Assembly: GCA_025361565.1 (NCBI GenBank)
Contig: JANYKN010000050.1
Location: 81,914-145,913 of the forward strand
Source: Bacteroidota bacterium
Lineage (GTDB): Bacteria > Bacteroidota > Bacteroidia > Bacteroidales > NBLH01
Length of the DNA: 64,000 nucleotides
Direction of reading: 5' to 3'
Shown in pieces: positions 3,349 to 20,496 of this stretch. Below the pieces are notes generated by a model that ran no database searches, was not told where the DNA came from, and was given only the letters and a program-made list of their open reading frames with translations. Within the stretch, counting starts at the first letter, position 1, and every line of letters begins with the position of its first letter. The translations under genes and the position numbers were made by a program.

Positions 3349-3351
3349 AAA

Positions 3352-4629: not shown

Positions 4630-4822
4630 GCAATCAAATCATTTTCAAATAAATATGCCTTATCCGGTCATCAAAACATAGTTTTTCTTGAAGACAAAGA
4701 TTTAATTTTTAGCAATATTTCGGTAAACCAGATGTGCCAAGTTCATTTATCTGCAACAAACAGAGCAAATTTTTATTGGAGAAACGAAGATTGAAGCATT
4801 GCTTAAATACCTTAACTTATAG
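4630..4822 (+). pseudogene. Remnant of a thioredoxin-like gene (C-terminal third)
   Basis: This stretch is nearly identical at DNA level to the last third of the redoxin genes at 9330, 12619 and 15246. In one frame it reads AIKSFSNKYALSGHQNIVF, then a small deletion shifts the frame before the segment matching the cis-proline motif. It ends with the same codons, stop and downstream sequence as the intact copies. No N-terminal part, membrane anchor or CxxC remains. It shows that at least one more module once stood to the left. Confidence 0.85.
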
Positions 4823-5103
4823 AACACAGATGACACGAATTGAACTGATTAACACGGATTTGTGATTATTCGTTTGATTAGTGTTATCCGTGTTGAATCT
4901 ACAAATAAATATCCATTTCTTATAATCGTACAATACCTATAAAGTTATATATCTAAATCACTAAATATATCCTGTTCGATTATAAATACGGTTCATTAGT
5001 CAATCAAATAATGAATTTTGTCAAAAAAAAAAAAACAATTGTCAAATTGTTTCAATACTTTCATAACCTTTATTTAATAAATACTAATTTAAACTTTTTG
5101 ATT
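4823..5103 (+). repeat. Module boundary repeat, copy 1 (putative promoter region of peptide 1)
   Basis: About 280 bases shared with 9852-10129, 13141-13419 and 15768-16044. In order they contain ACACAGATGACACG and an AACACGGAT/ATCCGTGTT inverted repeat, a segment near AAATCACTAAATAT, a poly-A run, the palindrome ACAATT-GTCA-AATTGT (5035-5050), ATACTTTCAT and TACTAATTTAAAC, ending at the peptide ATG. The first part probably ends transcription of the preceding module and the last part starts transcription of the peptide gene. The similarity is seen; the roles are inferred. Confidence 0.75.
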
Positions 5104-5259
5104 ATGAAAAAATTGAATTTGGAACAAATGGAATTGGTTGAAGGTGGCGGCACTAGTAACTATTGTACAACATTAAGGTATTGGATAAATCATGATGGAG
5201 AAGGATATCAGGGTGATTTTCTATATTTGCTTAAAACATATTATACTAATTGTGCTTAA
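5104..5259 (+). CDS. Double-glycine leader peptide precursor 1
   Basis: A 51-residue peptide. The leader MKKLNLEQMELVEGG fits the double-glycine consensus: Leu at -12, Gln at -8, Met at -7, Val at -4, Gly-Gly at -2/-1 (taking residue 15 as -1). The remaining 36 residues (GTSNYCTTLRYWINHD and on) are rich in Tyr and Gly and have exactly two cysteines, 29 residues apart, the second next to last. The ATG at 5104 was chosen because the leader and spacing match the other four peptides; an in-frame ATG at 5011 would put the promoter repeat inside the gene. Cleavage and export by the transporter at 18328 are inferred. Bacteriocin or signal peptide cannot be decided. Confidence 0.8.
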   Translation: MKKLNLEQMELVEGGGTSNYCTTLRYWINHDGEGYQGDFLYLLKTYYTNCA

Positions 5260-5364
5260 ATATAAAATAATTTGAAATTTGTCATTAACAAATAATAAAG
5301 TGCGATATCTTTTATTAAGTTAATAAGATAAATTAATATTACAATATATTTAGATCTGTTATTG

Positions 5365-5391
5365 AGGCTGCTATATTTTTTGCAGCCTTTT
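5365..5391 (+). terminator. Stem-loop after peptide gene 1
   Basis: AGGCTGC (5365-5371) pairs with GCAGCCT (5382-5388), followed by TTT, just before the next gene at 5405. It probably stops part of the transcripts, giving more peptide than partner protein. Confidence 0.6.
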
Positions 5392-5404
5392 AAATATCAA
5401 AACC

Positions 5405-6667
5405 ATGAAAAGATTTTTCCTATTTCAAATTCTAGTGATAATTTGTATAAATACAATTGCGCAAGATGGCTATATTACAATAAAAGGCACCATTTATAAC
5501 CAAGAAGATTCTTCAAAAATTTTATTTGCAAATATATATGTTGAAGCTAGCAGCATAAGTACAATAAGCGATGAAACAGGTTCTTTTGTATTCCATATAC
5601 CTGATTCCCTTAAAGAACGCAGACTTGTTGTATCATCCATTGGCTATTACAATTTTGTAAAAGAAATCAAAGACTTGGAATTGGATAATAAAATTCTATT
5701 GCAACCCCACACTTATATGATCAATGAAGTTGTGATATTGTCGGATAGCTTGGAACCAAAAGAAATTGTAAGAAAGGCGCTGAAAAATTTTTCTAAAAAT
5801 TATCCAAAGAAAAAATACTACCTCGATGCATTTTATAGGGGATTGGCTTATGATCAAACGCAATACTTAAGACTCATTGAAGCAGCAATTGGCATCTTTG
5901 ACTTTGGCTATGACAGCGATGCTGAAAGGGCAAGGATAAAAGTGCTGGAACTAAGAAAAAGCAATGATTATGTAAAATACTATAAATATAAGACTATACT
6001 TGATTTTATGTTTGGAAAAGAAAACGCTTTATATAAGGCATATTATTCGAATCCTTTAAGATCAGAAATGACGGAATTTGGATTCCGGTTTGATAAAGAC
6101 TTTGTCAACAAATACACATTTGAATTGCAAGAATTAACCTATTTAGATTCCACGCTTGTTTACCAGATAGCTTTCAATATTTGTACACATGGACCAAATA
6201 CTGGAAACCGGGGGGTGTTGTATATTCGGCTAGATGATTTTGCCATTATAAAAATCATTAGTGGGATGTATTTTGACACAGCTGTAGGTAACCGTTTGCG
6301 GGAATATCTATATAATGAATGCTATTTTCATTACAATACAGTCATCTTTAGAAAATTTGAAGGGAAATACTATCCCAGTTTTATCGAACACAATGGGGTG
6401 ATGGAAGATAATGCAGACAAAGAAGGTAGGTTTCAGAATATTTTGGTAGTAAATAATATCTATACCAATAAAGATTATTACGAAAAAATAATAAAAAAGT
6501 ATGCCGAAAAGAAGGATGTTTCACTAACTGAACAAACCTTCAAGTACAATCCAGAATTTTGGAAAAACTACAATGTATTGACGAGTAATCCATTGCCATT
6601 CAAGGTTTTTAAAGACCTCGAAAAAGAAAAAACCATAGAAAAACAATTTAAAGAAAACAGCAAATGA
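5405..6667 (+). CDS. Exported CarboxypepD_reg-like domain protein of module A
   Basis: A 420-residue protein with a signal peptide (FFLFQILVIICINTIAQ, cleavage near residue 20). Residues 24-108 form a carboxypeptidase D regulatory-like beta-sandwich: IKGTIYNQED, ISDETGSFVFHIP, VVSSIGYYNF and ending INEVVILSD. Such domains occur at the N terminus of many Bacteroidota envelope proteins. The remaining 310 residues match no domain I know, and no TonB-dependent barrel follows. It sits in the second slot of the module, where each module has a different exported protein. Its stop overlaps the start of the next gene by 4 bases (ATGA), so translation is probably coupled. Confidence 0.75.
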   Translation: MKRFFLFQILVIICINTIAQDGYITIKGTIYNQEDSSKILFANIYVEASSISTISDETGSFVFHIPDSLKERRLVVSSIGYYNFVKEIKDLELDNKILLQPHTYMINEVVILSDSLEPKEIVRKALKNFSKNYPKKKYYLDAFYRGLAYDQTQYLRLIEAAIGIFDFGYDSDAERARIKVLELRKSNDYVKYYKYKTILDFMFGKENALYKAYYSNPLRSEMTEFGFRFDKDFVNKYTFELQELTYLDSTLVYQIAFNICTHGPNTGNRGVLYIRLDDFAIIKIISGMYFDTAVGNRLREYLYNECYFHYNTVIFRKFEGKYYPSFIEHNGVMEDNADKEGRFQNILVVNNIYTNKDYYEKIIKKYAEKKDVSLTEQTFKYNPEFWKNYNVLTSNPLPFKVFKDLEKEKTIEKQFKENSK

Positions 6668-7290
6668 AATTGAGTCTTGTAATTTACAAATTTGAAAAAG
6701 ACCGTTGGTATATCTTTGGCTTTTTTTGTTTGTTGAATATCTTGTTTTTGTTCCTGATAAATGATGTAATTATTACTGATCCAAAATACTTCACGGGAGG
6801 TAACGATAACAGTGTAAACCTTTTTCGCAATGTTTATACTGCAATCTATTTTATCAATCCCATATACTCCTTTATAAAAATTGCATCCATTGCTCTTGTG
6901 TTAAAACTTGGGGCTGCTTTATATTGTAATTTGGAATTGGAATTCAGGCAATTGTTTACACTGGCAACCATTGCTGGTTTTGTGCTGCTTTTGCCCGATT
7001 TATTAGAGGTGATTTGGTTTCTGATAATTCATACCGGTTACACAATGGAAGAAGTGAAATTTTTTGCACCACTTTCTTTATTTAGCTTGTATGATATTAA
7101 CGAGTTTCCAGAGTCTTATGGGTATCTTTTAAAGTTAATCAACCTTTTTGAGTTGGTTTATTGGTTTATTCTCATTATTGGTCTGGCTGGTTTGGGAGCA
7201 AAATCAAAACTACACGGACTAAAAATTGTTGCCGGTTCATATGGTATTGGCTTGCTGGTGATTATTTTGTTCACATGGCTCATCTTCTAA
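6664..7290 (+). CDS. Five-helix membrane protein, module A (Yip1-like layout)
   Basis: A 208-residue integral membrane protein with about five hydrophobic helices, near residues 17-35, 60-85, 92-122, 150-175 and 185-207. It shares layout and short motifs with the proteins at 11934 and 14567: a first helix ending IL..F..N.V, KLGAALYCNLELEFRQLF, LLPDLLEVIWFLI, SLFSLYDINEF, and NLFELVYWFILIIGL. The arrangement recalls Yip1-domain proteins, but I cannot assign it firmly. Position in every module suggests immunity, peptide maturation or electron supply to the redoxin, all inferred. Confidence 0.65.
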   Translation: MKLSLVIYKFEKDRWYIFGFFCLLNILFLFLINDVIITDPKYFTGGNDNSVNLFRNVYTAIYFINPIYSFIKIASIALVLKLGAALYCNLELEFRQLFTLATIAGFVLLLPDLLEVIWFLIIHTGYTMEEVKFFAPLSLFSLYDINEFPESYGYLLKLINLFELVYWFILIIGLAGLGAKSKLHGLKIVAGSYGIGLLVIILFTWLIF

Positions 7291-7313
7291 TCCGTTTTTC
7301 CAATATCTAATAG

Positions 7314-7562
7314 AATGACAAAGAAATTGAAAATCGTGTTGATAGTGTCTTTATTTCATTGGAATGGCTAGGAGAAATAGATATTAATAATAAATTGAGC
7401 AAGAATACAATAGTTATTAGTCCAAAATCTAAAATTAGTATCGTAGATTTAGATCCGAAAATATTTTTTCGATCATGGGGAATAAAATGGGCAAATCCCG
7501 AAAAATTTCCTACACCTATAGGTTATTTTCAGCCCCTTTTTGGAATAATCCTAGAACCTTAA
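7314..7562 (+). pseudogene. Remnant of a CarboxypepD-like module protein (C-terminal end)
   Basis: An open stretch with no plausible start reads VFISLEWLGEID, then a divergent middle, and ends WGIKWANPEKF...YFQPLFGIILEP. This matches the C-terminal ends of the proteins at 7569, 8446 and 17038 (F[VI]S[ML]EW[IV]G and then PL[FY]G). The N-terminal two thirds are missing. It appears to be the tail of a deleted first copy in a row of duplicates. Confidence 0.7.
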
Positions 7563-7571
7563 AATGAGTTG

Positions 7572-8426
7572 ATGAAAAATATAATTATAATTTTGTTTGT
7601 ATTGCTCTCTCCAGATTTGCTGGCTCAGAATTCTGTGTCCTTTACTGTTATAGATTCTGTTTCAAAACAAGCTGTTCCTTTTCTCAAAATAGTTGTTGTT
7701 GGGAAAGAAAAAGGGACATATAGTGATGAACATGGATTTGCGAAAATTGATAATCTATCTGATTATGATACAATTTCAATTGATAACATTTTCTATCAAA
7801 GAATATTGCTGCCAACGAAGAATTTACGAAACATTAAACAAATTATACTTTTACCCAAACCTTTTATTTTAAATGAAGCAATAGTTAAACCTTATAGTGA
7901 CAAAGAGATTGAAATTGGCTATTCAAAAATTAGATCAAATGGTAGTTTTGGCACCGATATAATTGGTACTGAAATAACTGTATTAATAAAACCTGGGGAT
8001 ATTCAAAATGCTTATATTAATTTTATTATCCTGAAATTTAAATATAAAGTAAAAAACACTCAAGTAAGAGTTCATTTATACCAAAACGAACAGGGAAAAC
8101 CAGGAACAGAAATATATATAAAGGATAACCTTATATCTGTAGCTGGAAAAGATGAAGTGAGATTTAATATTGTAAACCAGCACATTAAATTACCTTTAGA
8201 AGGTATGTTTGTTTCAATGGAATGGATTGGAAATAATAAAGTAAAAGGTGAAATTTATAATGAAGCTGAATTTAAATCAAGCCCCAGGGTCAAAGCGACA
8301 ACAGTTAATCAAAAACGTAAAGTAATAAGTTTGTTTAGATCTTATGGGAAATGGGAACCTATTCCTCGTTCAGATAGTAAAGTATACCTGCCCTTATTCG
8401 GACTAATAGTTCAAGAACAGAAGTAA
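7572..8426 (+). CDS. Exported CarboxypepD_reg-like protein, tandem copy 1
   Basis: About 284 residues. A signal peptide (IIIILFVLLSPDLLAQ) is followed by a carboxypeptidase regulatory-like domain at about residues 22-100 (FTVIDSVSKQAVPFLKI, GTYSDEHGFAKI, LNEAIVKP). The C-terminal 180 residues begin with IGTEITVLIK and contain RVHLYQNEQGKPGTEIY and FVSMEWIGN. They match the proteins at 8446 and 17038 and nothing else I recognise. Two ATG codons adjoin at 7572 and 7569. It is a clear duplicate of the next gene, sharing DNA around the regulatory domain. It lacks a TonB barrel, so a periplasmic or surface role in the module is most likely. Confidence 0.75.
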   Translation: MKNIIIILFVLLSPDLLAQNSVSFTVIDSVSKQAVPFLKIVVVGKEKGTYSDEHGFAKIDNLSDYDTISIDNIFYQRILLPTKNLRNIKQIILLPKPFILNEAIVKPYSDKEIEIGYSKIRSNGSFGTDIIGTEITVLIKPGDIQNAYINFIILKFKYKVKNTQVRVHLYQNEQGKPGTEIYIKDNLISVAGKDEVRFNIVNQHIKLPLEGMFVSMEWIGNNKVKGEIYNEAEFKSSPRVKATTVNQKRKVISLFRSYGKWEPIPRSDSKVYLPLFGLIVQEQK

Positions 8427-8445
8427 ACTAATAGGTCAATAAAAA

Positions 8446-9318
8446 ATGAAAAATGTAACAATAGCACTATTTCTGTTAATTGCATCAAACTTGCATGGCC
8501 AAAAGTCTGTTTCCTTCACTATTATTGATTCTGTTTCAAAACAAGCTGTTCCTTTTCTTAAAATTAGTGTTGCAGGAAAAGATAAGGGAACATATAGTGA
8601 TGAAAACGGGTTTGTGAAAATTAATGATCTGTCAAGCAATGATACGCTATTTATTACTGACATTTTCTATGAACATAAATTCCTACCGGTAAAAACATTA
8701 CAGAAAAATCAACAAATTTTGTTTTCTCCAAATCCAATTAGCTTAAATGAAGTAATCGTTAAACCTTTTACAGAAAGAGAAAAAGAAATAGGTTATGCCA
8801 CAATCAGACCAAATACGAATTTCTTTAATTCAATTATAGGCACAGAATTGGCTTTTCTAATAGAGCACAAAAATATTAAACCTGCATATATAAATGATAT
8901 CATTATTAAGATTAAGAAAAATTCAAAAATTAATTCAATGGTGAAAATTCATTTATACCATAACAACCAAGGAATGCCGGGTATGGAAGTTTATCTGAAA
9001 AATAACCTAAATACTATATCCGATAAAAACCAGTTGAAATACAATATTAAAGACCAGAATATCCAACTGCCTGAAAATGGTATATTTGTATCAGTGGAAT
9101 GGATTGGGAGGTTTAATGAAAATGGTAAAATATTTAATGATAAATCACATATTTTAACACCTTGTATTAATATCAGGTCAACTTCTGATAAAAAAATAAA
9201 AGGAAAAGGTTATATCAGACATTACGGTAATTGGGATCCATTTATATTAAAATCCACAAGTGGTAAAGAAGAATTTTATATACCATTATACGGACTAATA
9301 ATAGAAGAACAAAAATAA
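8446..9318 (+). CDS. Exported CarboxypepD_reg-like protein, tandem copy 2
   Basis: A 290-residue paralogue of the preceding gene, 19 bases downstream of it. Signal peptide IALFLLIASNLHGQ; regulatory-like domain at about residues 21-100 (FTIIDSVSKQAVPFLKI, GTYSDENGFVKI, LNEVIVKPF); then IGTELAFLIEH, KIHLYHNNQGMPGMEVY and FVSVEWIGR. The two proteins agree over their whole length, with long identical stretches at the start and more divergence toward the end. That suggests a recent duplication with selection or drift in the C-terminal part. The redoxin gene follows after 11 bases. Confidence 0.75.
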   Translation: MKNVTIALFLLIASNLHGQKSVSFTIIDSVSKQAVPFLKISVAGKDKGTYSDENGFVKINDLSSNDTLFITDIFYEHKFLPVKTLQKNQQILFSPNPISLNEVIVKPFTEREKEIGYATIRPNTNFFNSIIGTELAFLIEHKNIKPAYINDIIIKIKKNSKINSMVKIHLYHNNQGMPGMEVYLKNNLNTISDKNQLKYNIKDQNIQLPENGIFVSVEWIGRFNENGKIFNDKSHILTPCINIRSTSDKKIKGKGYIRHYGNWDPFILKSTSGKEEFYIPLYGLIIEEQK

Positions 9319-9329
9319 GTAAACCCATT

Positions 9330-9851
9330 ATGAGAAAGAAACTTAAAATACTTATCCCAACTATTTTTATCTTGCTTATTGTTTTTATGGTATATAAAAT
9401 ATCAGCAAAAAAAATACAAGAGCTCAAACAAATCGAACAAATACAAAACTTGCCTTCATTCTCTTTTAGCAATATTAATACTGGGAAAGTATTTACCGAC
9501 AAGGATATAGAACAGAACAAGCAAAAACTAATCATTTATTTCCACCCCGATTGTGAGTTTTGCCAAGAACAGGCTACAGGAATTAGCAAGAAAATAGATG
9601 ACTTCAACAGCTTTCAATTGCTTTTTGTTTCTCCTGCAGATAGTGTTGCAATTAAATCATTTTCAAATAAATATGCCTTATCCGGTCATCAAAACATAGT
9701 TTTTCTCGAAGACAAAGATTTGATATTCAGCACTATTTTTGGTAAATCCGGTGTGCCAAGTTCATTCATCTACAACAAACAGGGCAAATTGGTAAAGGAA
9801 TTTAGGGGTGAGGCAAATATTGATGAATTACTAAAATACTTAAAAGATTAG
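9330..9851 (+). CDS. Membrane-anchored thioredoxin-fold protein, module A
   Basis: A 173-residue protein with one N-terminal membrane helix (residues 7-23) and an exported thioredoxin/AhpC-like domain. The active-site motif FHPDCEFCQEQ places Cys75 and Cys78, and GVPSSFIYNKQGKLV carries the cis-proline loop. This is the TlpA/ResA type of periplasmic thiol-disulfide protein. It lies last in the module, 11 bases after the previous gene. A likely role is making, isomerising or reducing the disulfide of the module's two-cysteine peptide, which is inferred. It is closely similar to the copies at 12619 and 15246. Confidence 0.85.
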   Translation: MRKKLKILIPTIFILLIVFMVYKISAKKIQELKQIEQIQNLPSFSFSNINTGKVFTDKDIEQNKQKLIIYFHPDCEFCQEQATGISKKIDDFNSFQLLFVSPADSVAIKSFSNKYALSGHQNIVFLEDKDLIFSTIFGKSGVPSSFIYNKQGKLVKEFRGEANIDELLKYLKD

Positions 9852-10129
9852 AACACGAATAACGCGGATTAAACGGATCAACACCGATCTGTGAAAATTC
9901 GTAATATCCGTGTCATCCTTGTTCAAACCATAATAAAATATCCATTTCATATAATTGCTCCATACAAATAAAGCTATATATCTAAATCACTAAATATGTT
10001 CTATTCGATTGTAAAAACAGTTTGCTCGTCAATCAAATATTGAAATTTGTCAAAAAAAAACAATTGTCAAAATACTATGCTAACTTCATAATTGATATTC
10101 TTTTGGTACTAATCTAAATTTTAAAAAAA
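9852..10129 (+). repeat. Module boundary repeat, copy 2
   Basis: Second copy of the boundary found at 4823-5103. It keeps the AACACGGAT-type inverted repeat, the AAATCACTAAATAT segment and the poly-A run followed by ACAATTGTCA, but the right arm of the palindrome is changed (10060-10075). The stretch between it and the ATG is also more divergent than in the other copies, so peptide 2 may be regulated differently. Confidence 0.7.
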
Positions 10130-10324
10130 ATGAAAAAACTTAGTTTTGAACAAATGGAAAATGTTGAAGGCGGCTTAGGTCAAGATTGTCAAGGATTTAC
10201 TACAGCAGAAATGTGGACAGAAGTATGGTTTCTGCTTACTCCAGGTCTATTCACCAATGTAAATGCAACATTCACGAATATTGGTAATAATTGTTGGTTT
10301 GGAGAATCGGGTTGGATGAATTAA
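10130..10324 (+). CDS. Double-glycine leader peptide precursor 2
   Basis: A 64-residue precursor: leader MKKLSFEQMENVEGG, then 49 residues beginning LGQDCQGFTTAEMW and ending CWFGESGWMN. The core is rich in Trp, Phe, Asn and Gly and has exactly two cysteines, 35 residues apart. The core shares no sequence with the other peptides while the leader is nearly the same, the pattern expected when one processing transporter serves several products. Processing at Gly15 by the transporter at 18328 is inferred. Confidence 0.8.
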   Translation: MKKLSFEQMENVEGGLGQDCQGFTTAEMWTEVWFLLTPGLFTNVNATFTNIGNNCWFGESGWMN

Positions 10325-10332
10325 TAATAATC

Positions 10333-10372
10333 GTGTATGCCTAAATTTTGAAAAGTTTAGGTATATACTTTA
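10333..10372 (+). terminator. Stem-loop after peptide gene 2
   Basis: Positions 10333-10345 pair with 10356-10368 over 13 positions, counting G-T wobbles, around a 10-base loop, followed by TTTAG. It starts 9 bases after the peptide stop. It could act as a partial terminator or as a 3' end that protects an abundant peptide message. Confidence 0.55.
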
Positions 10373-10568
10373 GTATGAATTTTGTTTGAAAATATTCATG
10401 CACGAATTTATTAATTTATTGATACCTATATAATGAAGATTAATTATTTTAGTTTGCAATAAGTCAAAATCGAATAAAAGCTTTTAAATTATAAGGTTTA
10501 TTCATAAATCTGAGTTGTCTCTTGAAAAACATTTAGTTAAATTACATAAAAGATTAATAATAAGGAAA

Positions 10569-11789
10569 ATGAGTAATTGCAATAAAAAATATAGATTATC
10601 ATTAATTAAAAGAAAACAAATATTTTTTTGCAAAATAGATCCTAAAAATCTATTTTTAAATAATTTAAAGTCAGTATTGTTTCTTTTTTTATTATTTAAT
10701 AGCTTATTTCTCCAAGGGCAAAATATAAATTCATTTTCGATTAAATCTGAAAACAAAAATCCAATAAACAAAAATAACTTGGATAGTATCTATAAAAACA
10801 ATATTTTATGCACAAAATATAAGGAAGTTGTAAGACTTGACACTTTATTCTGGAAACAATATCCAAAGATTTCTCTCGACAGTATTCCTCAGTTAAAAGT
10901 AATTAATGCAAACGAGCTTGCTAAAAAAGCACTCGATATTAAACATTCTGAATATTATACAAATCAGCCTTTTAATCTTATTGGAACATATAGTGAAAGC
11001 GAAATGCGGAATAATACTCATACCTCACAAAACATAGAAACAAAAGTATTGGTATACGATCCAGGTTTTTCTAGTGGCAAGTTACCTTGGGCACAAACTG
11101 AAAAATGTTATTATAAGTATAAGTCGGCAGATATTTCACTATCGACAGCCGAAATCTGGATGATTTCATTGGTTGGTGAATATAGTAATCTGTATTTTTC
11201 CCTCGATTATGATTTTTTGAGGATGTATAATTTCCCAACTTGTAATGAATTAGGAGGAGATAGAAGAATATGGAGCACCCACAATTTCAATTCTGAACAT
11301 GATTCCGATGATTATTGCTATTACAAGGCTTATAAAAAAGACAGTGCAATATACGTGATATTGGTAAGTACCCGAAGTTATTCAATCATGGATAAAGCTA
11401 GAAATTTTAATTATAATTTACCAAAAGATTTTGTCAAACCAGTAACAACTGAATATAAATACTTATTAATCAACTTAAACACAAATGCAATTGAAAAAAC
11501 AGGTTTTTACATTAACAATTCTCATAATTCCATACCTTTTATGGTAACATCATATGAAACATCATATAAGTTTAATGGAAATAAATATTTTTTGAACCAT
11601 GTTAAAAATAATAGCTTTTTGCTTGGTGAGTATGCTTCAATAAGATCCATTTCATTTGATGTTGATAGTGTTGTAAATGACCCTTCAAAAGTTAAGAAAA
11701 TAAAGGAATCTCAGGCAGATCCAAGAAAAGTGAATTATATCGATTACTTTATTGGTAACAATTTGATAATAGATAAAATCAAAGATTGA
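10569..11789 (+). CDS. Exported protein of unknown family, module B
   Basis: A protein of about 406 residues from the ATG at 10569; a TTG at 10515 would add 18 residues. A hydrophobic stretch VLFLFLLFNSLFLQGQ near residues 36-51 looks like a signal peptide after an unusually long basic N-terminal region. The mature part has no domain I can name. The stretch NELAKKALDIKHSEYY followed by LVYDPGF faintly resembles the part after the regulatory domain in the module A protein at 5405 (EIVRKALKNFSKNYP). It takes the same slot, between peptide and five-helix membrane protein. It has no CarboxypepD-like domain. Confidence 0.6.
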   Translation: MSNCNKKYRLSLIKRKQIFFCKIDPKNLFLNNLKSVLFLFLLFNSLFLQGQNINSFSIKSENKNPINKNNLDSIYKNNILCTKYKEVVRLDTLFWKQYPKISLDSIPQLKVINANELAKKALDIKHSEYYTNQPFNLIGTYSESEMRNNTHTSQNIETKVLVYDPGFSSGKLPWAQTEKCYYKYKSADISLSTAEIWMISLVGEYSNLYFSLDYDFLRMYNFPTCNELGGDRRIWSTHNFNSEHDSDDYCYYKAYKKDSAIYVILVSTRSYSIMDKARNFNYNLPKDFVKPVTTEYKYLLINLNTNAIEKTGFYINNSHNSIPFMVTSYETSYKFNGNKYFLNHVKNNSFLLGEYASIRSISFDVDSVVNDPSKVKKIKESQADPRKVNYIDYFIGNNLIIDKIKD

Positions 11790-12617: not shown

Positions 12618-12618
12618 A

Positions 12619-13140
12619 ATGAAACAAAAACTAAAAATAATACTACCTGCAATAGTCATATTCCTTGTTACTTTCATGGGATATAAAATATTTGCAATGC
12701 TTGCTCAAAAAGATAAAATTGCTGCCCAAATCCAGTCCATGCCTCCATTTACATTCACCAATACAAGCACGGGCAGTATTTTTACCGATGGCAATTTACA
12801 GCCCAATTTATCAAGCCTTATCATATATTTCCACCCCGATTGTGAGTTTTGCCAAGAACAGGCCGCAGGAATTAGCAAGAAAATAGATGACTTCAACAGC
12901 TTTCAATTGCTTTTTGTTTCTCATGCAGGTAGTGTTGCAATTAAATCATTTTCAGATAAATATGCCTTATCCAGTCATCAAAACATTGTTTTTCTTGAAG
13001 ATACAAATTTGATAATCAGTTCTATATTTGGTAAATCCGGTGTTCCAAGTTCATTCATCTACAACAAACATGGAAAACTGGTAAAGCATTTTAAGGGTGA
13101 AGCAAAGATTGAAGAATTACTTAAATACCTTAACTTATAG
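12619..13140 (+). CDS. Membrane-anchored thioredoxin-fold protein, module B
   Basis: A 173-residue copy of the redoxin in module A with the same layout: membrane helix at residues 7-26, FHPDCEFCQEQ with Cys75 and Cys78, and GVPSSFIYNKHGKLV near the end. The DNA from the CxxC motif onward is almost the same as in the 9330 gene, while the region before it is closer to the 15246 gene. This patchwork suggests recombination between copies. It starts one base after the membrane protein gene. Confidence 0.85.
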   Translation: MKQKLKIILPAIVIFLVTFMGYKIFAMLAQKDKIAAQIQSMPPFTFTNTSTGSIFTDGNLQPNLSSLIIYFHPDCEFCQEQAAGISKKIDDFNSFQLLFVSHAGSVAIKSFSDKYALSSHQNIVFLEDTNLIISSIFGKSGVPSSFIYNKHGKLVKHFKGEAKIEELLKYLNL

Positions 13141-13419
13141 AACACAGATGACACGGATTGAACTGATTAACACAGATTTGTGATTATTCGTAATATCGGT
13201 GTCATCCGTGTTCAAACCATAATAAAATACCAATTTCATATGAATGATCCATGCATATAAAGCCCTAAATTTAAATCACTAAATATCTTCAATTAGATTA
13301 CAAAAACAGTTTGTACGTCAACAAATCTTTGAACTTAGTCAAAAAAAAAAAAACAATTGTCAAATTGTTTCTATACTTTCATGACCGTTAAAATAAATAC
13401 TAATTTAAACTTTTAGATT
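13141..13419 (+). repeat. Module boundary repeat, copy 3
   Basis: Third copy, following the redoxin stop directly. It contains GAACACAGATGACACGG and an AACACAGAT/ATCCGTGTT inverted repeat, the AAATCACTAAATAT segment, a run of 13 A, a perfect ACAATT-GTCA-AATTGT palindrome at 13353-13368, and CTATACTTTCATGACC before the peptide start. Confidence 0.75.
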
Positions 13420-13620
13420 ATGAAAAAACTTAGTTTAGTACAAATGGAAGTTGTTGAAGGTGGTATTGCATGTTATGGTTCTAATGGTGTAGGTGCTGTA
13501 ATGAATTATTTATACACTCATGGTCAACTTGATCAATGGTCTGCAATAATGAATTCATCAACTGTCATGTGTTACATGTCAGATGGATCATATGTAAATT
13601 TTTGGTCAGGTGTAAATTAA
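13420..13620 (+). CDS. Double-glycine leader peptide precursor 3
   Basis: A 66-residue precursor: leader MKKLSLVQMEVVEGG, then 51 residues beginning IACYGSNGVGAVMNY and ending MSDGSYVNFWSGVN. The core is rich in Gly, Ser, Tyr, Asn and Met and nearly uncharged. It has two cysteines 33 residues apart. As with the other precursors, the leader is shared and the core is unique. The neutral, small-residue core resembles pore-forming class II bacteriocins in composition only. Confidence 0.8.
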   Translation: MKKLSLVQMEVVEGGIACYGSNGVGAVMNYLYTHGQLDQWSAIMNSSTVMCYMSDGSYVNFWSGVN

Positions 13621-13641
13621 GCTGATTTTTAAAAAAGCTCT

Positions 13642-13690
13642 TGGTTATTTATTTCACTATTCCAGTGTTACGAATAACCATTTCTATTTT
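13642..13690 (+). terminator. Stem-loop after peptide gene 3
   Basis: TGGTTATT (13642-13649) pairs with AATAACCA (13673-13680), with a smaller CACT/AGTG stem inside the loop, followed by TTTCTATTTT. It lies 21 bases after the peptide stop and probably ends most of its transcripts. Confidence 0.5.
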
Positions 13691-13904
13691 ATTGCTTGAA
13701 TTATAATAAATAAAAATTAAAGGCTTTGATGAAAACATTCATAACAATTATTATAAATAATTTATAGTTATGTTCATGAAATTCAATAATATGCTAAATT
13801 CTATTGTCCAATTCATCATACATATGTTTTCAATTCAAATGTTATAAATAAAATAGAAATAGTAATAGTAATAATCAAACCGAAAACTAAAAACAATTAA
13901 TGCA

Positions 13905-14567
13905 ATGAAAATACAAATTATACTAATAACAATATGTTTCTCAAAATTTATTTCAAATGCACAGTCATTTGAAGGAAAGATTATTATAAAAACCGAATTC
14001 TATAAAAATATTCCAAATACAAATATATCTGAAAATCAAGCATCAACAATCGACACTTCAGTGTTTTATATACAAAATGATAAATTCAGAAGTTCATCTT
14101 TAACATTCAATAAATTTTCCTATACCATCCAATTACATAACAAAAATTATTTTGTTGAAGAAAAATCTAAAACAATAATTTATGATACAGGTTCGGATTC
14201 AACAATAAAGATCTTCAACAATTTATCTCATTCGCTGAAACAAAAAAGATCTAAAAAGAAAATAATAGGCTATCCTTGCGTAGAATATGATTTTATTATC
14301 AAATCAAAAATAGATGGTAAGTTATCTAAAAGTGCATGGATAAGTAATTCATTGCAATTTGAACAATCATATTTCGAGTTTTTCATCAAAGATATTGGTT
14401 TGGTAATAAGATCTATAAGCAAATTCAAAAGTGGTATTGCCTACCAAGATGTCATAGAAGTATTGCCGATGAAACTTGATACTAAGATTTTTGAATTACC
14501 AAATTACCCAGTTGAAGAAGTAGATATGGCAAAGAAAGCTAAAGCTTTTATTAATAATAATGAATAA
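13905..14567 (+). CDS. Exported DUF4412/GLPGLI-like protein, module C
   Basis: A 220-residue protein with a signal peptide (IILITICFSKFISNAQ). The mature part starts SFEGKIIIKTEFYKN, and then has TSVFYIQNDKFRSS, KSKTIIYDTG, and KKIIGYPCVEYDFII. This order (F-x-G-x-I start, a recorded-molecule strand, then I-x-G-Y-x-C-x-x-Y) is typical of Bacteroidota proteins of the DUF4412 or GLPGLI type, which are exported beta-rich proteins without known function. It takes the variable second slot of the module. Its stop and the next start share one base (TAATG), so translation is coupled. Assignment is from pattern only. Confidence 0.6.
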   Translation: MKIQIILITICFSKFISNAQSFEGKIIIKTEFYKNIPNTNISENQASTIDTSVFYIQNDKFRSSSLTFNKFSYTIQLHNKNYFVEEKSKTIIYDTGSDSTIKIFNNLSHSLKQKRSKKKIIGYPCVEYDFIIKSKIDGKLSKSAWISNSLQFEQSYFEFFIKDIGLVIRSISKFKSGIAYQDVIEVLPMKLDTKIFELPNYPVEEVDMAKKAKAFINNNE

Positions 14568-15244: not shown

Positions 15245-15245
15245 A

Positions 15246-15767
15246 ATGAAACAAAAATTAAAAATTATTATCCCAATAACTCTTATTTTACTCGTTACTT
15301 TTATGGGATATAAGATATTTGCCATACTAAAACAAAAAGATAAAATTGCAGCCCAAATCCAGTCCATGCCTCCATTTGCATTCACCAATACTAGCACGGG
15401 CAGTATTTATACTGATGCCAATTTACAGCCTAATATATCAAGCCTTATCATTTATTTCCACCCCGATTGTGAATATTGCCAAGAACAGGCCGCAGGAATA
15501 AACAAGCAGATAGATGACTTCAACAACTTTCAATTGCTTTTTATTTCACATGCCGATAGTGCTGCTATCAAATCATTTTCAAACAAATATGGCTTATCTG
15601 GGCATCAAAACATTGTTTTCCTCGAAGACAAAGATTTGATTTTTAAATCCATTTTTGGAAAAACGCCTGTTCCAAGTTCATTTATTTACAATAAACAGGG
15701 CAAATTGGTTAAGCAATTTAAAGGTGAGGCAAAGATTGAAGATTTACTTAAGTACCTTAACTTATAG
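15246..15767 (+). CDS. Membrane-anchored thioredoxin-fold protein, module C
   Basis: A 173-residue redoxin, most similar to the module B copy: membrane helix at residues 7-26, FHPDCEYCQEQ with Cys75 and Cys78, and TPVPSSFIYNKQGKLV with the cis-proline loop. Exported by its N-terminal anchor, it should act on thiols outside the inner membrane. It is the last intact redoxin of the island; only a fragment remains further right. Confidence 0.85.
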   Translation: MKQKLKIIIPITLILLVTFMGYKIFAILKQKDKIAAQIQSMPPFAFTNTSTGSIYTDANLQPNISSLIIYFHPDCEYCQEQAAGINKQIDDFNNFQLLFISHADSAAIKSFSNKYGLSGHQNIVFLEDKDLIFKSIFGKTPVPSSFIYNKQGKLVKQFKGEAKIEDLLKYLNL

Positions 15768-16044
15768 AACACAGATGACACGGATTGAACAGATTAACAC
15801 GGATTTGTGATTATTCGTTAGATTAGTGTTATCCGTGTTCAAACCATAATAAAATAACAATTTCATATGAATGCTCCATACATATAAAGCCATATATTTA
15901 AATCACTAAATATGTTCATTTAGATTACAAAAAAAGTTCGTCCGTCAACAAATATTTGAGCTTAGTCAAAAAAAAACAATTGTCAAATCGTTTCTATACT
16001 TTCATGACCGTTATTTAATAAATACTAATTTAAACTTTTTTAAA
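15768..16044 (+). repeat. Module boundary repeat, copy 4
   Basis: Fourth copy. It has ACACAGATGACACGG and an AACACGGAT/ATCCGTGTT inverted repeat, the AAATCACTAAATAT segment, a run of 9 A, the palindrome with one mismatch (ACAATT-GTCA-AATCGT, 15976-15991), and CTATACTTTCATGACC. It leads into peptide gene 4. Confidence 0.75.
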
Positions 16045-16206
16045 ATGAAAAAACTTAGTTTAGAACAAATGGAAGTTGTTGAAGGTGGTAGAGTATTTTG
16101 GGGTGAGGAATATGTATATTTAGGCGATGGCATGTTTACTCGTACTTATTATGTTTTAGGTATTGCAGTTTCAACCGAATATATTTGTGTTTTAGGCATG
16201 GATTAA
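16045..16206 (+). CDS. Double-glycine leader peptide precursor 4
   Basis: A short 53-residue precursor. Leader MKKLSLEQMEVVEGG; core starts RVFWGEEYVYLGDG and continues FTRTYYVLGIAVSTEY, ending ICVLGMD. It has one cysteine. The boundary repeat stands directly upstream and the ATG matches the other peptides. It is a paralogue of peptide 5, the only pair in the island whose cores are alike. No exported protein, membrane protein or redoxin follows before peptide 5. Confidence 0.75.
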   Translation: MKKLSLEQMEVVEGGRVFWGEEYVYLGDGMFTRTYYVLGIAVSTEYICVLGMD

Positions 16207-16596
16207 GAAAAGTAAGGTTTTCTTTTTTCTTATTTAAACTTTGCATATTTGTAAAGAAACCTAATAAATTATTGGACCTTTCGAGCCAAAAATTATTTGA
16301 TTGAAACAAATAGTCAAATCAATTCTGTTTCTTTTATTATTCAATATTAAATTTTTTCTTATTTATTTGAGTAATATATAATATGTAAATAAGTGCAGTC
16401 AATTCTTATTTAATTCTAAATTCTAAAACTAAAAACAAATGAATAAATCGATATCTTAAGATATTATTCACTAATGCATGGTTTTGATTATTTGGTCATG
16501 GATTATAGATTTTTGGTCAAAAATAAAATACGATTATTAAAATACTATTCAATTTATATTACAAATATTTTTAATATTAATTTAAATCTTTTAACT
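16207..16596. other. Intergenic region between peptide genes 4 and 5
   Basis: AT-rich, without an open frame of note. A weak AAGAAAA/TTTTCTT stem lies at 16206-16231 just after peptide 4. Before peptide 5, TTGGTCA occurs twice, 21 bases apart (about 16492 and 16513), a spacing of two helical turns that would suit a dimeric regulator. The palindrome of the boundary repeat is absent, so peptide 5 has a different upstream region from the other four. Confidence 0.4.
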
Positions 16597-16758
16597 ATGA
16601 AAAAACTTAGTCTGGAACAAATGGAAGTGATTGAAGGCGGTAGAGTATTTTGGGGTGCAGAATACGTAAATGAAGGCGATGGTTGGTGGACTCGTACTTA
16701 TTATGTATTTGGTATAGCAGTTAGAACTGAACACATTTATGTTGAACTTCTTGAATAA
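16597..16758 (+). CDS. Double-glycine leader peptide precursor 5
   Basis: A 53-residue precursor. Leader MKKLSLEQMEVIEGG; core starts RVFWGAEYVNEGDGWWTRTY and ends with EHIYVELLE. It contains no cysteine. It aligns without gaps to peptide 4 (same RVFWG, EYV, GDG, TRTYYV and GIAV segments) but has swapped the single Cys for Tyr and gained two Trp. The ATG at 16597 was preferred over upstream in-frame starts because it begins the shared leader. Confidence 0.78.
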   Translation: MKKLSLEQMEVIEGGRVFWGAEYVNEGDGWWTRTYYVFGIAVRTEHIYVELLE

Positions 16759-16784
16759 ATCACTTCTCAATTCATAAGTTTACG

Positions 16785-16815
16785 GAATTCGCAAAATGAT
16801 AAATTTTGCGAATTC
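16785..16815 (+). terminator. Perfect 12-bp stem-loop after peptide gene 5
   Basis: GAATTCGCAAAA (16785-16796) and TTTTGCGAATTC (16804-16815) are exact inverted repeats around a 7-base loop, 26 bases after the peptide stop. No long T-run follows beyond the stem's own T residues. Confidence 0.55.
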
Positions 16816-17037
16816 ATTCTAAATAAGTTTTAACATATTGAGTATTTTGAAAAATCTAAACTTTTTCTGAATCTGATCAGTTTAATTCATGAATTTTACA
16901 TTCTTGTTGCAACTTAGTGTTTTTGTGCCAAAAATAATACTTGGCCCAAAGGTTATAAGATATATAAGATTCACAAAGTTTATAAACACGAAGGGCTTTG
17001 CGATGCAAATTAATCAGGCTAGATTAATTAAATTTCT

Positions 17038-17952
17038 ATGAACAAATTCAATTTAAGATTTTTATCTTCATTTATATTATTTTCAATTTGGACATTAAGC
17101 AATGCTCAAAATTCTGAACAAATATACGTAATAGACTCTTTGACAAAAGAACCAGTTTCGTATTCAATAATTAGAAACTTAAAAGATTCAACCGGCTTTT
17201 ATTCTAATATTGAGGGTCAATTCGATAAAAAGGATTTGATTGGAAAAGAAATTGAAGTATCAAGTATTGGTTATTACTCTAAAGAAACAAAACTTACAAT
17301 CAAAAGTAAGTACATCAACCTAAAGCCTAAGAATTATACTATTGATGAAGTCATAATCAAGCCACAAAAATATAAAACGAAAAAAATAGGGTATGCTAAT
17401 AACAAGGATGAAAATAAAGTCTATCAAACATATACTTGCGGAAGTGAATTAGCTGTATTTATAAAAAATCCAAATGGTAGCATAGCATTTATTAATAAAA
17501 TAATAATAGATGCAAATATTAATGCTAGAAAAATAAAAGAACTCAATTTAAATTTTGTAAGTGTTTTTAAAATAAATATGTACTCCATTGGTGAAAATGA
17601 AAAAATTGGAGAAATAATTAATAAGGTACCATTAATATTCACCAGTAAAAATTTAAATAAGAAAACTACACTTGATATTTCACAGGAACGCTTTTTAATG
17701 CCCAACAATGGTGTTTTTATATCAATTGAATGGGTTGGAATTGAAAACCAAGTGACCAAAGAAATAAAAACAACAAAAGAAGCTATTGAACCATTTATCG
17801 GTCTTTCCTTAAAACCCAGTGATGCAATTGTTTATAAGCGGAATAAACTAGGAAGTAACAGATGGCAATTATATGATTCAAATGATATTATATTAAAAAA
17901 TAGAGTTATGAAAAATTATATTCCTAAGATTAGTATTGAAATTGCGTATTAA
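17038..17952 (+). CDS. Exported CarboxypepD_reg-like protein, distal copy
   Basis: A 304-residue relative of the proteins at 7572 and 8446. Signal peptide LSSFILFSIWTLSNAQ; regulatory-like domain at about residues 28-110 (YVIDSLTKEPVSYSII, STGFYSNIEGQFDKK, VSSIGYYSKE, IDEVIIKP). The C-terminal region has CGSELAVFIKN and GVFISIEWVG. It lacks the LY.N.QG.PG stretch of the other two, where it reads FKINMYSIGENEKIG. It is the most diverged of the group and follows peptides 4 and 5 in place of a full module. Confidence 0.7.
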   Translation: MNKFNLRFLSSFILFSIWTLSNAQNSEQIYVIDSLTKEPVSYSIIRNLKDSTGFYSNIEGQFDKKDLIGKEIEVSSIGYYSKETKLTIKSKYINLKPKNYTIDEVIIKPQKYKTKKIGYANNKDENKVYQTYTCGSELAVFIKNPNGSIAFINKIIIDANINARKIKELNLNFVSVFKINMYSIGENEKIGEIINKVPLIFTSKNLNKKTTLDISQERFLMPNNGVFISIEWVGIENQVTKEIKTTKEAIEPFIGLSLKPSDAIVYKRNKLGSNRWQLYDSNDIILKNRVMKNYIPKISIEIAY

Positions 17953-18148
17953 TAGAATAGCTGGGTAGATTTTTTGCTCAGAAAGTTCTAGGTTTTTGTT
18001 TCTAGATTAATCCAACTATTGCTCTTCGTTAAAATGCATTTAACCGATTAAAACAATACCAAAAAATTAATTCGTTTTCAAGGAAGAATGATCTGGTTTT
18101 CTGAATTTTTTTTCCTATATGTAAAGTTCAAATGTTTCTATATAGAAA
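17953..18148. other. Intergenic DNA before the redoxin fragment
   Basis: Nothing recognisable. It joins the last CarboxypepD-like gene to a redoxin fragment and then the transporter gene. Confidence 0.3.
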
Positions 18149-18254
18149 ATCAGCAGTGCCCACAAGTTTTATCTACAACAAAAACAGAAAGCTGGTGAAG
18201 CAAATTAAAGGGGAAGCAAAGATTGAGGAATTACTTAAATATTTGAATGAGTGA
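18149..18254 (+). pseudogene. Remnant of a thioredoxin-like gene (last 35 codons)
   Basis: Reads KSAVPTSFIYNKNRKLV and then KGEAKIEELLKYLN to a stop, the exact C terminus of the island redoxins including the cis-proline segment. Everything before it, including the CxxC motif, is gone. It marks the right end of a lost module next to the transporter. Confidence 0.85.
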
Positions 18255-18327
18255 ATGCATGAATGCTTAAATGTATGAATTTTAATAATTGTTTTACTAA
18301 AAATAGATATAAAATATCTACCGCACA

Positions 18328-20496
18328 TTGAGTACTTTGAACCTAAAACACATAAAAAAAACTTTCACTCCCCAGCACGATCAATCCGATTGTGGTGTTG
18401 CTTGCCTTGCCTCGTTAACAAAATATTATGGAGGCGATATTTCCATTGAAAAATTCCGCGAATATAGCGGAACAACCAAACAAGGAACTACATTGTTGGG
18501 ATTATACCAGGGCGCTGAAAAAGCTGGTTTTGAAGCTGAAGGCAATGAAGCAGATATTCAAGCCATTATTGAACATAGCGAGCCTTTAATCCTCCATGTG
18601 GTTATTGACAAAAAACTGAACCATTATGTGATTTGTTATGGTTACACAGATAAGCAGTTCATCATTGGCGACCCGGGCAAAGGAATAGTAAATTATAGTC
18701 CAGCGGAGTTAGAAGAAATATGGGTTTCGAAAAAATGCCTTACTTTAAAGCCCAATGGTCAATTTCAGCAAAAAAATGAAGTAACAAACCGAAAAAAAGA
18801 TTGGATAAAAACTTTGGTTAAAGAAGATTATGAGCTTCTTGGAATCAGCATTGCCCTAGGTGTAGTTATCTCTGTTTTGGGAATGGTGATGGCCGTGTTT
18901 TCGCAAAAATTAATCGACAATATTTTGCCATCAAAAGATTTGAACAAACTGATAATGGGCATTGTACTGGTTGGTATTTTATTGCTTGCGCGCAACGCCT
19001 TGTCTGCAATCAGGCAATATCTGCTTATTTCGCAAAGTAAAAATTTCAACAATCGCATTACTGCTTCATTTTATGGGGCTTTGCTCTTTTTGCCCAAACC
19101 TTTTTTCGATACCCGTAAAATTGGCGAACTGGTTGCACGGTTGAACGATACAACACGCATACAACGTGTAATTACCCAAATAGCTGGCAATTTTATAATC
19201 GACTTGTTAATTTCGATAATATCGATTGGTTTCCTTTTTTTATATTCCTGGCAAAGTGGAATGATTGCAGCAATAAGTTTACCATTTTATTTTATCCTGA
19301 TTTATCGGTTTAACAATCAAATTATTTCAGCCCAAAAAGATACCATGGTTGCTTATGCGCAAAGCGAAAGCAATTACATCAGTAGCATGAACGGAATCGC
19401 TGCCATCAAAAACTTCAACAAACAGGATTATTTTGCCAATCTGAATAAAATCATTTATGGAAAACTTCAGGAAAAGATGTTTCATTTGGGAAAAATCAAT
19501 ATCAATCTTGGATTGATTTCAGGCATTGCCAGCGTGTTGTTTTTAATTGCCATTCTTGCCTTTACGTCAATAGAAGTTTACCACAACACCATGAAATTGG
19601 GTGAATTGATGGCCATATTGGGCATTGCAGCATCGTTAATCCCTTCCATTGGCAACCTGGCCTTGATATCAATACCGGTAAACGAAGCCAAAGTTGCATT
19701 TAACAGAATGTTTGAATTTACAGATATCCGATCGGAGTTAGCAGGAGAGAACATAACAGATACATTCCATTTGGAAAAACTTGAAATCCGAAATCTTGGT
19801 TTCCGTTTTACTGGCCGCAAAAGGCTATTGGAAAACATCAACATCAGCCTTAAAAAATCGGAACTCGTTGCCATTGTTGGCGAAAGTGGTGGTGGCAAAA
19901 GCACTTTGGGAAATATTTTACAAAAGTTTTATCAATCAGAAACGGGTACAATTCAAGTAAATGATACTATTGATATCCAAACCATTGCAACCGATATTTG
20001 GAGAACCAAAATAGCGGTTGTACCCCAAGATATTCATATTTTCAACGGAAATGTATTGGATAATATTTGTTTGGACAATATAGCCGAAGAAGGCGAAAAT
20101 GTACTCCGGTTTTTAATTGAATATGGTTTCGATAAATACATCAACAACCTACCAAATGGTTATTTAACCATGTTGGGTGAGGAAGGAATCAACCTTTCGG
20201 GTGGTCAAAAACAAATTGTTGCTTTTGCAAGGGCATTGTATAAAAAACCACAACTTTTAATCCTCGACGAGGCTACAGCAGCCATGGACAGGGAAACTGA
20301 AAAATTCATCATTGATTTGCTCAAAAAATTGAAAGGCGAAATGGCTGTTTTTTACATTTCACATCGATTACATGTTTTAAAAGACATTGCTGACAGGATT
20401 TATGTGCTTGAAAATGGAACACTCCAAACATTTGGTACCCATGATGAATTAATGAAAACGAAGAATTTTTATAGTGGATATTTTGGAGGGTTTTAG
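18328..20496 (+). CDS. Peptidase-containing ABC transporter (C39 protease, exporter)
   Basis: A 722-residue PCAT. Residues 10-140 are a C39 cysteine protease: Cys22 in HDQSDCGVACLAS, His99 in KLNHYVICYG and Asp115 in IIGDPGKG. Residues 160-460 are an exporter membrane domain with about six helices. Residues 480-722 are the ATPase, with Walker A GESGGGKST, signature NLSGGQKQ, Walker B LLILDEATAAMD and H-loop YISHR. Such proteins cut the leader after Gly-Gly and export the peptide. It is the only exporter in the island and so the likely shared one for all five precursors. No ATG precedes the protease motif, so the start must be TTG (18328 or 18337). No HlyD adaptor gene is adjacent, unlike many Bacteroidota clusters. 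Confidence 0.93.
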   Translation: MSTLNLKHIKKTFTPQHDQSDCGVACLASLTKYYGGDISIEKFREYSGTTKQGTTLLGLYQGAEKAGFEAEGNEADIQAIIEHSEPLILHVVIDKKLNHYVICYGYTDKQFIIGDPGKGIVNYSPAELEEIWVSKKCLTLKPNGQFQQKNEVTNRKKDWIKTLVKEDYELLGISIALGVVISVLGMVMAVFSQKLIDNILPSKDLNKLIMGIVLVGILLLARNALSAIRQYLLISQSKNFNNRITASFYGALLFLPKPFFDTRKIGELVARLNDTTRIQRVITQIAGNFIIDLLISIISIGFLFLYSWQSGMIAAISLPFYFILIYRFNNQIISAQKDTMVAYAQSESNYISSMNGIAAIKNFNKQDYFANLNKIIYGKLQEKMFHLGKININLGLISGIASVLFLIAILAFTSIEVYHNTMKLGELMAILGIAASLIPSIGNLALISIPVNEAKVAFNRMFEFTDIRSELAGENITDTFHLEKLEIRNLGFRFTGRKRLLENINISLKKSELVAIVGESGGGKSTLGNILQKFYQSETGTIQVNDTIDIQTIATDIWRTKIAVVPQDIHIFNGNVLDNICLDNIAEEGENVLRFLIEYGFDKYINNLPNGYLTMLGEEGINLSGGQKQIVAFARALYKKPQLLILDEATAAMDRETEKFIIDLLKKLKGEMAVFYISHRLHVLKDIADRIYVLENGTLQTFGTHDELMKTKNFYSGYFGGF

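What the first reader, a model, noticed from the sequence alone, without database searches (positions are those of the whole stretch)
4630..20496. Tandemly expanded family of double-glycine-leader peptides with a repeated maturation module and one shared exporter
Seen: five precursors share one 15-residue leader (MKKLSLEQMEVVEGG type) and have four unrelated kinds of core. Three head modules of peptide, exported protein, five-helix membrane protein and membrane-anchored CxxC redoxin, and a C39-protease ABC transporter closes the island. Known: C39 transporters cut at Gly-Gly and export bacteriocins or pheromones. Inferred: a multi-product secretion system whose modules are copied and diversified, each product with its own partner proteins. 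The combination of these membrane and exported proteins with redoxins is not one I can match to a described class.
Basis: partly seen in the sequence, partly recalled or inferred. Interest (0 to 1): 0.9.

Follow-up and report, generated by a model that had tools for sequence, protein, structure and literature searches.

The report
Multi-product bacteroidetocin-type peptide toxin island
A Bacteroidales bacterium carries a tandemly copied set of genes for making and exporting small antibacterial-type peptides, a known kind of bacteriocin system (bacteroidetocins); what is new is that the toxin-making module has been copied several times, and that each peptide sits next to its own exported protein, possibly the self-protection protein that nobody has found for these toxins.

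Summary
Five GG-leader precursors, three five-helix membrane proteins, three intact CxxC redoxins (plus two remnants), exported proteins and one C39 exporter lie at 4630-20496. DNA similarity between copies runs through upstream DNA and leader and falls to chance exactly at Gly-Gly. The claim that the combination matches no described class is wrong: membrane protein + GG peptide + thiol oxidoreductase + C39 transporter is the bacteroidetocin (class IIf) locus of Coyne 2019. The three-gene cassette is conserved across Bacteroidota in fixed order (78 of 89 loci). P4 and P5 cores are related to a peptide that is very probably bacteroidetocin D. New: a four-fold module expansion served by one exporter, and exported partner proteins that track core type. 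None of 109 Gly/Ala-rich cores has such a partner, against 12 of 34 others. One partner family's only other member in 295 genomes follows a GG peptide in a second exporter island of the same genome. Best reading: a multi-product bacteroidetocin-type bacteriocin island whose cores and cognate exported partners (candidate immunity or escort proteins) are swapped onto a shared leader, membrane protein, redoxin and exporter. Activity is untested. New variant of a known kind.

The parts
4630..4822 (+). 3' remnant of a redoxin gene (decayed module before P1)
   Evidence: 78-82% DNA identity to the 3' part of the three redoxins, frame broken
5104..5259 (+). Precursor P1: leader MKKLNLEQMELVEGG, 36-aa core with 2 Cys
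5405..6667 (+). Exported protein (420 aa), CarbopepD_reg_2 N-domain; candidate partner of P1
   Evidence: Pfam E 8e-12; homologues beside a TM1-type membrane protein in Prolixibacteraceae L143
6664..7290 (+). Five-helix membrane protein TM1 (divergent copy)
7359..7562 (+). 3' remnant of a further CarbopepD_reg-type partner gene
   Evidence: C-terminal motif shared with 7569/8446/17038 family, read by eye
7569..8426 (+). Exported CarbopepD_reg-type partner (285 aa)
   Evidence: 410-bit homologue in same-genus locus L236 directly after a KFWG-core GG peptide
8446..9318 (+). Exported CarbopepD_reg-type partner (290 aa), paralogue of 7569
   Evidence: Pfam E 9e-10; 49-50% identical to 7569 product
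9330..9851 (+). Membrane-anchored thiol oxidoreductase RX1 (CxxC)
   Evidence: AhpC-TSA E 7e-9; 104 of 105 family members keep CxxC
10130..10324 (+). Precursor P2: 49-aa core, 2 Cys
10333..10368 (+). 16-bp hairpin directly after P2 (attenuator- or terminator-like)
   Evidence: z -6.2
10515..11789 (+). Exported protein (family without Pfam match), candidate partner of P2
   Evidence: only other member in 295 genomes follows a GG peptide in a second C39 island of the same genome, L266
11934..12617 (+). Five-helix membrane protein TM2 (Yip1/YknW-like family)
12619..13140 (+). Thiol oxidoreductase RX2 (CxxC)
13420..13620 (+). Precursor P3: 51-aa core, 2 Cys
13905..14567 (+). Exported protein (220 aa), candidate partner of P3
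   Evidence: strong homologues only after two GG peptides of same-genus locus L060
14567..15244 (+). Five-helix membrane protein TM3
15246..15767 (+). Thiol oxidoreductase RX3 (CxxC)
16045..16206 (+). Precursor P4: 38-aa core RVFWG.., 1 Cys
   Evidence: core related to L236/L095/L097 cores
16597..16758 (+). Precursor P5: 38-aa core RVFWG.., no Cys
   Evidence: as P4
17038..17952 (+). Exported CarbopepD_reg-type partner (304 aa) of P4/P5
   Evidence: homologue follows KFWG-core peptide in L095; model: SusC-NTE-like domain plus beta domain
18132..18254 (+). Redoxin 3' remnant in the P4/P5 module
18328..20496 (+). C39 peptidase-ABC exporter shared by all precursors
   Evidence: Pfam Peptidase_C39 5e-31, ABC_membrane 4e-32, ABC_tran 7e-29
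20725..20770 (+). Strong terminator-like hairpin closing the island
   Evidence: z -7.3

Best explanation
The island is an expanded, multi-product bacteroidetocin-type (class IIf) bacteriocin locus. Each precursor carries the same 15-residue leader. The single C39-ABC transporter is expected to cut after Gly-Gly and export the core into the periplasm (inferred from family). The membrane-anchored CxxC oxidoreductase is expected to form the core's disulfide, and the Yip1/YknW-like five-helix protein to assist processing or export; both are needed for full bacteroidetocin B activity in Bacteroides (published). Core-plus-partner units were put behind a copied promoter and leader, with breakpoints at Gly-Gly, and the peptide - exported partner - membrane protein - redoxin module was duplicated. 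The exported, non-membrane partner proteins most likely act on the mature peptide or its target in the producer's periplasm or outer membrane. I think immunity most likely, escort across the outer membrane next. Shown: gene content, module copying, leader/core breakpoint, conserved cassette, relation of P4/P5 cores to a probable known bacteroidetocin, partner-core association. Inferred: cleavage, disulfide formation, antibacterial activity, immunity role.
For: The four-gene bacteroidetocin composition, with leader of 15-16 aa and five TM helices, is published. Membrane protein + redoxin + C39 transporter lie together in 99 of 123 fetched loci, in the order TM-RX-C39 in 78 of 89 non-redundant ones. 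127 of 143 precursors found have a leader of exactly 15 aa, and 105 of 143 cores have exactly 2 Cys. The window-built membrane-protein profile finds the L097 locus (E 3e-5), which has the published order TM - peptide - redoxin - C39 ABC and a 45-aa, 4-Cys core. L097 is very probably bacteroidetocin D of Prevotella oryzae DSM 17970: 3,287,991 bp single contig and 36.8% G+C of the first 114 kb, against 3.29 Mb and 37.0% in PMC6767994; dnaA first; about 80 ORFs before the peptide, against locus tag 0090. Core chain: P4/P5 to L236 z 10.3/8.3, L236 to L095 z 7.3, L095 to L097 z 5.1, P5 to L097 shuffle p 0.007. Copy breakpoint at Gly-Gly. Partners: 12 of 34 low-Gly/Ala cores against 0 of 109 Gly/Ala-rich cores, Fisher 6e-9; next non-cassette gene is a multi-TM membrane protein for 49 Gly/Ala-rich cores and 0 low-Gly/Ala cores.
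Against: No activity data. P1-P3 cores have no significant similarity to any tested bacteroidetocin. P4 and P5 have 1 and 0 Cys, where the definition asks for at least two. Published bacteroidetocin producers show no immunity, and L097 has no such partner, so the partners may do something else. The CarbopepD_reg partner family is broad and mostly unlinked to peptides. The association counts come from related loci and the partner models were built from some of the same loci, so the p-value is optimistic.
Confidence: 0.75

Rival explanations
1. The exported partners are escort or outer-membrane delivery proteins (or surface display partners) for their peptides, not immunity proteins; the peptides are still bacteriocins.
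For: The exporter only reaches the periplasm and no HlyD/TolC-type gene was recognised in the island; the partners are exported and carry a domain like the N-terminal extension of SusC transporters; Flammeovirga loci have TonB-dependent or CarboxypepD_reg proteins nearby.
Against: Bacteroidetocin four-gene loci work without any such partner, even in E. coli; partners vary with core type, as immunity proteins do.
Confidence: 0.3
2. The peptides are signalling pheromones rather than toxins.
For: GG peptides of C39 exporters include pheromones in streptococci (established knowledge); cores are soluble and diverse.
Against: No sensor kinase or response regulator was recognised in the island; closest characterised relative kills Bacteroidales; core diversity with product-specific partners fits conflict genes.
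Confidence: 0.08
3. The exported proteins are unrelated hitchhikers, members of common envelope families caught between duplicated cassettes.
For: CarbopepD_reg-type proteins occur in 291 of 394 Bacteroidota genomes sampled, usually away from GG peptides.
Against: The closest full-length relatives in other genomes sit directly behind related cores (L095, L236, L112); the 13905-type and 10515-type families' strong members are all behind GG peptides.
Confidence: 0.15

Closest known systems
Bacteroidetocins A-D and relatives (class IIf bacteriocins; Coyne et al. 2019, PMC6671954; target BamA, PMC8546649)
   Same: 15-residue GG leader, five-TM protein, membrane thiol oxidoreductase, C39 ABC exporter; P4/P5 cores related in sequence to the probable bacteroidetocin D
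   Different: Five precursors and a four-fold copied module on one exporter; P4/P5 have lost the cysteines and their module's redoxin is a remnant; exported partner proteins not part of the published four-gene locus
Class IIa/IIb bacteriocins with C39 ABC exporters of Gram-positive bacteria
   Same: GG leader and C39 exporter
   Different: No YGNGVXC motif; extra five-TM protein and redoxin; Gram-negative host
YknW/Yip1 membrane protein family (Bacillus YknWXYZ, SDP-toxin efflux, PMC4887032)
   Same: Weak profile matches of the five-helix protein family: 8 of 44 members to YknW_fam, best 1e-5; 3 of 44 to Yip1, best 3e-4
   Different: Window copies match only weakly or not at all (6664 E 0.002); no YknXYZ partners
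GLPGLI family (TIGR01200)
   Same: In Flammeovirga plasmid loci a GLPGLI protein directly follows the GG peptide, in the place of 13905
   Different: 13905 itself does not match GLPGLI; profile comparison inconclusive

Membership tests
Bacteroidetocin (class IIf) locus | Leader of 15-16 aa ending in GG | tested here: met
   All five precursors 15 aa
Bacteroidetocin (class IIf) locus | C39 peptidase-ABC transporter in the locus | tested here: met
   18328-20496
Bacteroidetocin (class IIf) locus | Orthologue of the five-TM protein | tested here: met
   Window-built profile finds L097 TM protein in the published gene order (E 3e-5); five membrane helices, pLDDT 92
Bacteroidetocin (class IIf) locus | Thiol oxidoreductase gene | tested here: met
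   Three CxxC redoxins; L097 redoxin matches the same model
Bacteroidetocin (class IIf) locus | At least two Cys in the mature peptide | tested here: inconclusive
   Met for P1, P2, P3 (2 each); not met for P4 (1) and P5 (0)
Bacteroidetocin (class IIf) locus | Mature peptide of 42-53 residues | tested here: inconclusive
   P2 49 and P3 51 fit; P1 36, P4 38, P5 38 are shorter
Bacteroidetocin (class IIf) locus | Core sequence similarity to known bacteroidetocins | tested here: inconclusive
   P4/P5 linked to probable bacteroidetocin D directly (P5 p 0.007) and through L236 and L095; P1-P3 none. Identity of L097 as bacteroidetocin D is inferred
Bacteroidetocin (class IIf) locus | Kills Bacteroidales, through BamA | not testable with these tools
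   Needs peptide synthesis and overlay assays
Class IIa bacteriocin | YGNGVXC motif in the core | tested here: not met
   Absent from all five cores
GLPGLI family (for 13905) | Match to TIGR01200 above cut-off | tested here: not met
   No match for 13905 or the two L060 homologues; L180 and L181 proteins match

The most novel reading that the evidence does not exclude
The core-specific exported proteins (CarbopepD_reg ~300-aa type, 13905 type, 10515 type, GLPGLI type) are the missing immunity proteins of bacteroidetocin-type peptides, acting from the periplasm or outer membrane, with their kind matched to where the core acts. Core and partner form a portable toxin-immunity unit that is swapped onto a shared leader and exporter.
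Probability: 0.4. Interest if true: 0.75.

Novelty: new variant of a known kind. Interest (0 to 1): 0.52.

Why it matters
Bacteroidetocins kill gut and oral Bacteroidales through BamA and are proposed as therapeutics, yet no immunity protein is reported for them in the papers I could search. This locus and its relatives give named candidate partners for specific cores, an arrangement that suggests core swapping at Gly-Gly, and a simple rule for finding many further peptides across Bacteroidota (membrane protein - redoxin - C39 order plus a 15-aa leader). That makes the immunity and outer-membrane-passage questions directly testable.

Tried and rejected
Pfam, NCBIfam and PADLOC gave no name for the five-helix protein copies at 11934 and 14567 or for 10515 and 13905; the precursors gave only sub-threshold hits. 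Fold search of the membrane-protein model gave nothing. Fold search of 17038 gave only the CarbopepD/SusC-NTE domain; a hit to chain E of the extended Flavobacterium BAM complex was followed into the paper but is a match of a common domain and was not used. P2 against the peptides of the second C39 island: core similarity not significant, so 'same core, same partner' is not shown there. 13905 versus GLPGLI: inconclusive. The alternative that the membrane protein is the immunity protein was rejected on published data. Plasmid and phage searches with the L097 peptide found nothing relevant. A profile alignment of all membrane proteins was too diverse for a collection scan; a narrower one worked. 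The careful membrane-protein tree did not finish; the quick tree was used only as a guide.
Full report
OBSERVATION. The leader pattern occurs five times in the 6.76-Mb genome, all here, with no match for the reversed control. Between P1-P4 the DNA upstream (270 nt) and the leader are 0.71-0.98 identical while the cores are at the level of shuffled sequence; P3 and P4 share 98% of the leader and nothing of the core. The spacer from redoxin stop to peptide start is 277-279 nt in all three intact modules and holds an 80-nt hairpin that is largely private to this island. Redoxin 3' remnants flank the array at both ends. So this is copying of a peptide - exported protein - membrane protein - redoxin unit with replacement of the core.

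KNOWN CLASS. Coyne et al. 2019 (PMC6671954) describe bacteroidetocin loci as four genes: an unknown protein with five TM regions, a small GG peptide with a 15-16 aa leader, a thiol oxidoreductase, and a C39 ABC transporter. Deleting the membrane protein or oxidoreductase lowers activity, neither gives immunity, and the four genes suffice in E. coli. The target is BamA (PMC8546649).

HOMOLOGY. A profile from the three window membrane proteins found relatives in 29 of 394 sampled Bacteroidota genomes. A scan of one genome per species gave 80 more loci with organism names. In 99 of 123 loci the membrane protein, redoxin and C39 transporter lie together; the order is membrane protein - redoxin - C39 in 78 of 89 non-redundant loci. 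These loci were found through the membrane protein, so the figures describe its company, not the frequency of the cassette. The exceptions include a clade in Cytophagales that sits elsewhere in the genome. I found 143 precursors in 82 loci: 127 have a leader of exactly 15 residues, 105 have exactly two Cys, 22 have four. The membrane protein folds as five long membrane helices (pLDDT 92) and is remotely Yip1/YknW-like. The oxidoreductases keep CxxC in 104 of 105.

LINK TO A TESTED TOXIN. Locus L097 has the published gene order and a 15-aa leader with a 45-aa, 4-Cys core starting KFWG. Its genome is 3,287,991 bp in one contig, 36.8% G+C over the first 114 kb, begins with dnaA, and has about 80 ORFs of 90 aa or more plus two tRNAs before the peptide. 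Prevotella oryzae DSM 17970, source of bacteroidetocin D (gene XylorDRAFT_0090), has 3.29 Mb and 37.0% G+C (PMC6767994). I infer that L097 is the bacteroidetocin D locus; it is not proved. The P4 and P5 cores are significantly like the 4-Cys KFWG core of same-genus locus L236 (z 10.3 and 8.3), which is like L095 (7.3); L095 is like L097 (5.1), and P5 is like L097 directly (p 0.007). P4 and P5 keep one and no Cys, and the redoxin of their module is a remnant, which fits loss of the disulfide. P1-P3 are other core kinds.

PARTNERS. In L236 a KFWG peptide is followed by a homologue of 7569 (410 bits), redoxin and C39 gene. In L095 a KFWG peptide is followed by a homologue of 17038, and in L112 an FLGWG core likewise. 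In same-genus locus L060 two C-x(n)-C cores are each followed by a homologue of 13905; in two Flammeovirga plasmids a hydrophilic C-x(n)-C core is followed by a GLPGLI protein. None of 109 Gly/Ala-rich cores has such a partner, against 12 of 34 others (8 loci; Fisher 6e-9). The next non-cassette gene after Gly/Ala-rich cores is instead a multi-TM membrane protein in 49 cases and in none of the others. The 10515 family has one other member in 295 Bacteroidales genomes: it lies in the window's own genome, directly behind a GG peptide of a second C39 island with a different, longer leader. These counts come from related loci, and the partner models were built from some of them, so the p-values overstate the case; the direction is clear. 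Against a strict link, the CarbopepD_reg-type family at large is common, and most members are not near GG peptides: a branch was recruited.

MECHANISM. Established or published for the family: C39 cleavage after GG and export; need for membrane protein and oxidoreductase. Inferred here: disulfide formation in P1-P3, release to the periplasm, and a role for the exported partners in the compartment where the mature peptide first appears. Immunity is my first choice because the partner changes with the core and not with the exporter; escort over the outer membrane is second.

VERDICT. It is a bacteroidetocin-type locus by machinery and, for P4/P5, by sequence. It differs from the published loci by the four-fold module expansion, the cysteine-poor paralogues and the cognate exported partners. 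New variant of a known kind; the open point worth testing is whether the partners are the missing immunity proteins.

Noticed in passing
window 21136-21385: Six 41-bp tandem repeats between the exporter and an H+-pyrophosphatase gene.
   Followed up: no
window 21655-23949 (+) and 24246-26777 (-): Two different membrane H+-pyrophosphatases encoded side by side and convergent.
   Followed up: no
window 27866-35353: 2495-aa SprA-type protein, the type IX secretion translocon (Pfam SprA_N E 2e-203), so the host probably has T9SS.
   Followed up: no
L266 (own genome C103:97000-113000): Second C39 exporter island with an HlyD-like protein and GG peptides with a different 25-aa leader (MKNFDLNAMGVQEMDA..DGG), sharing the 10515 partner family with the window.
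   Followed up: partly
L116, L121 (Aquimarina): Loci with 6-7 GG precursors, among them a second, 12-aa leader type (MNxxQLxSxKGG) rich in Cys, beside one C39 gene.
   Followed up: no
L075, L078, L079, L085, L090, L092, L093: Relatives of the five-helix protein in Cytophagales with no peptide or exporter nearby; in L075, L078 and L079 next to a large ~990-aa membrane protein gene (DUF2723-like by eye): a non-bacteriocin branch of the family.
   Followed up: partly
L180 (Flammeovirga pectinis plasmid) 11505-14376: LanC-like and glycosyltransferase genes directly after the GG peptide and GLPGLI gene, hinting at modified products.
   Followed up: no
L068 (G255) 375-19109: Another multi-module locus: three membrane proteins, two redoxins and five Gly/Ala-rich precursors, an independent expansion.
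   Followed up: partly
window 4833-4898, 9851-9927, 13141-13216, 15768-15843: 80-nt imperfect palindrome after each redoxin, z -4 to -6, with only partial matches elsewhere in the genome; possible recombination substrate or terminator.
   Followed up: partly
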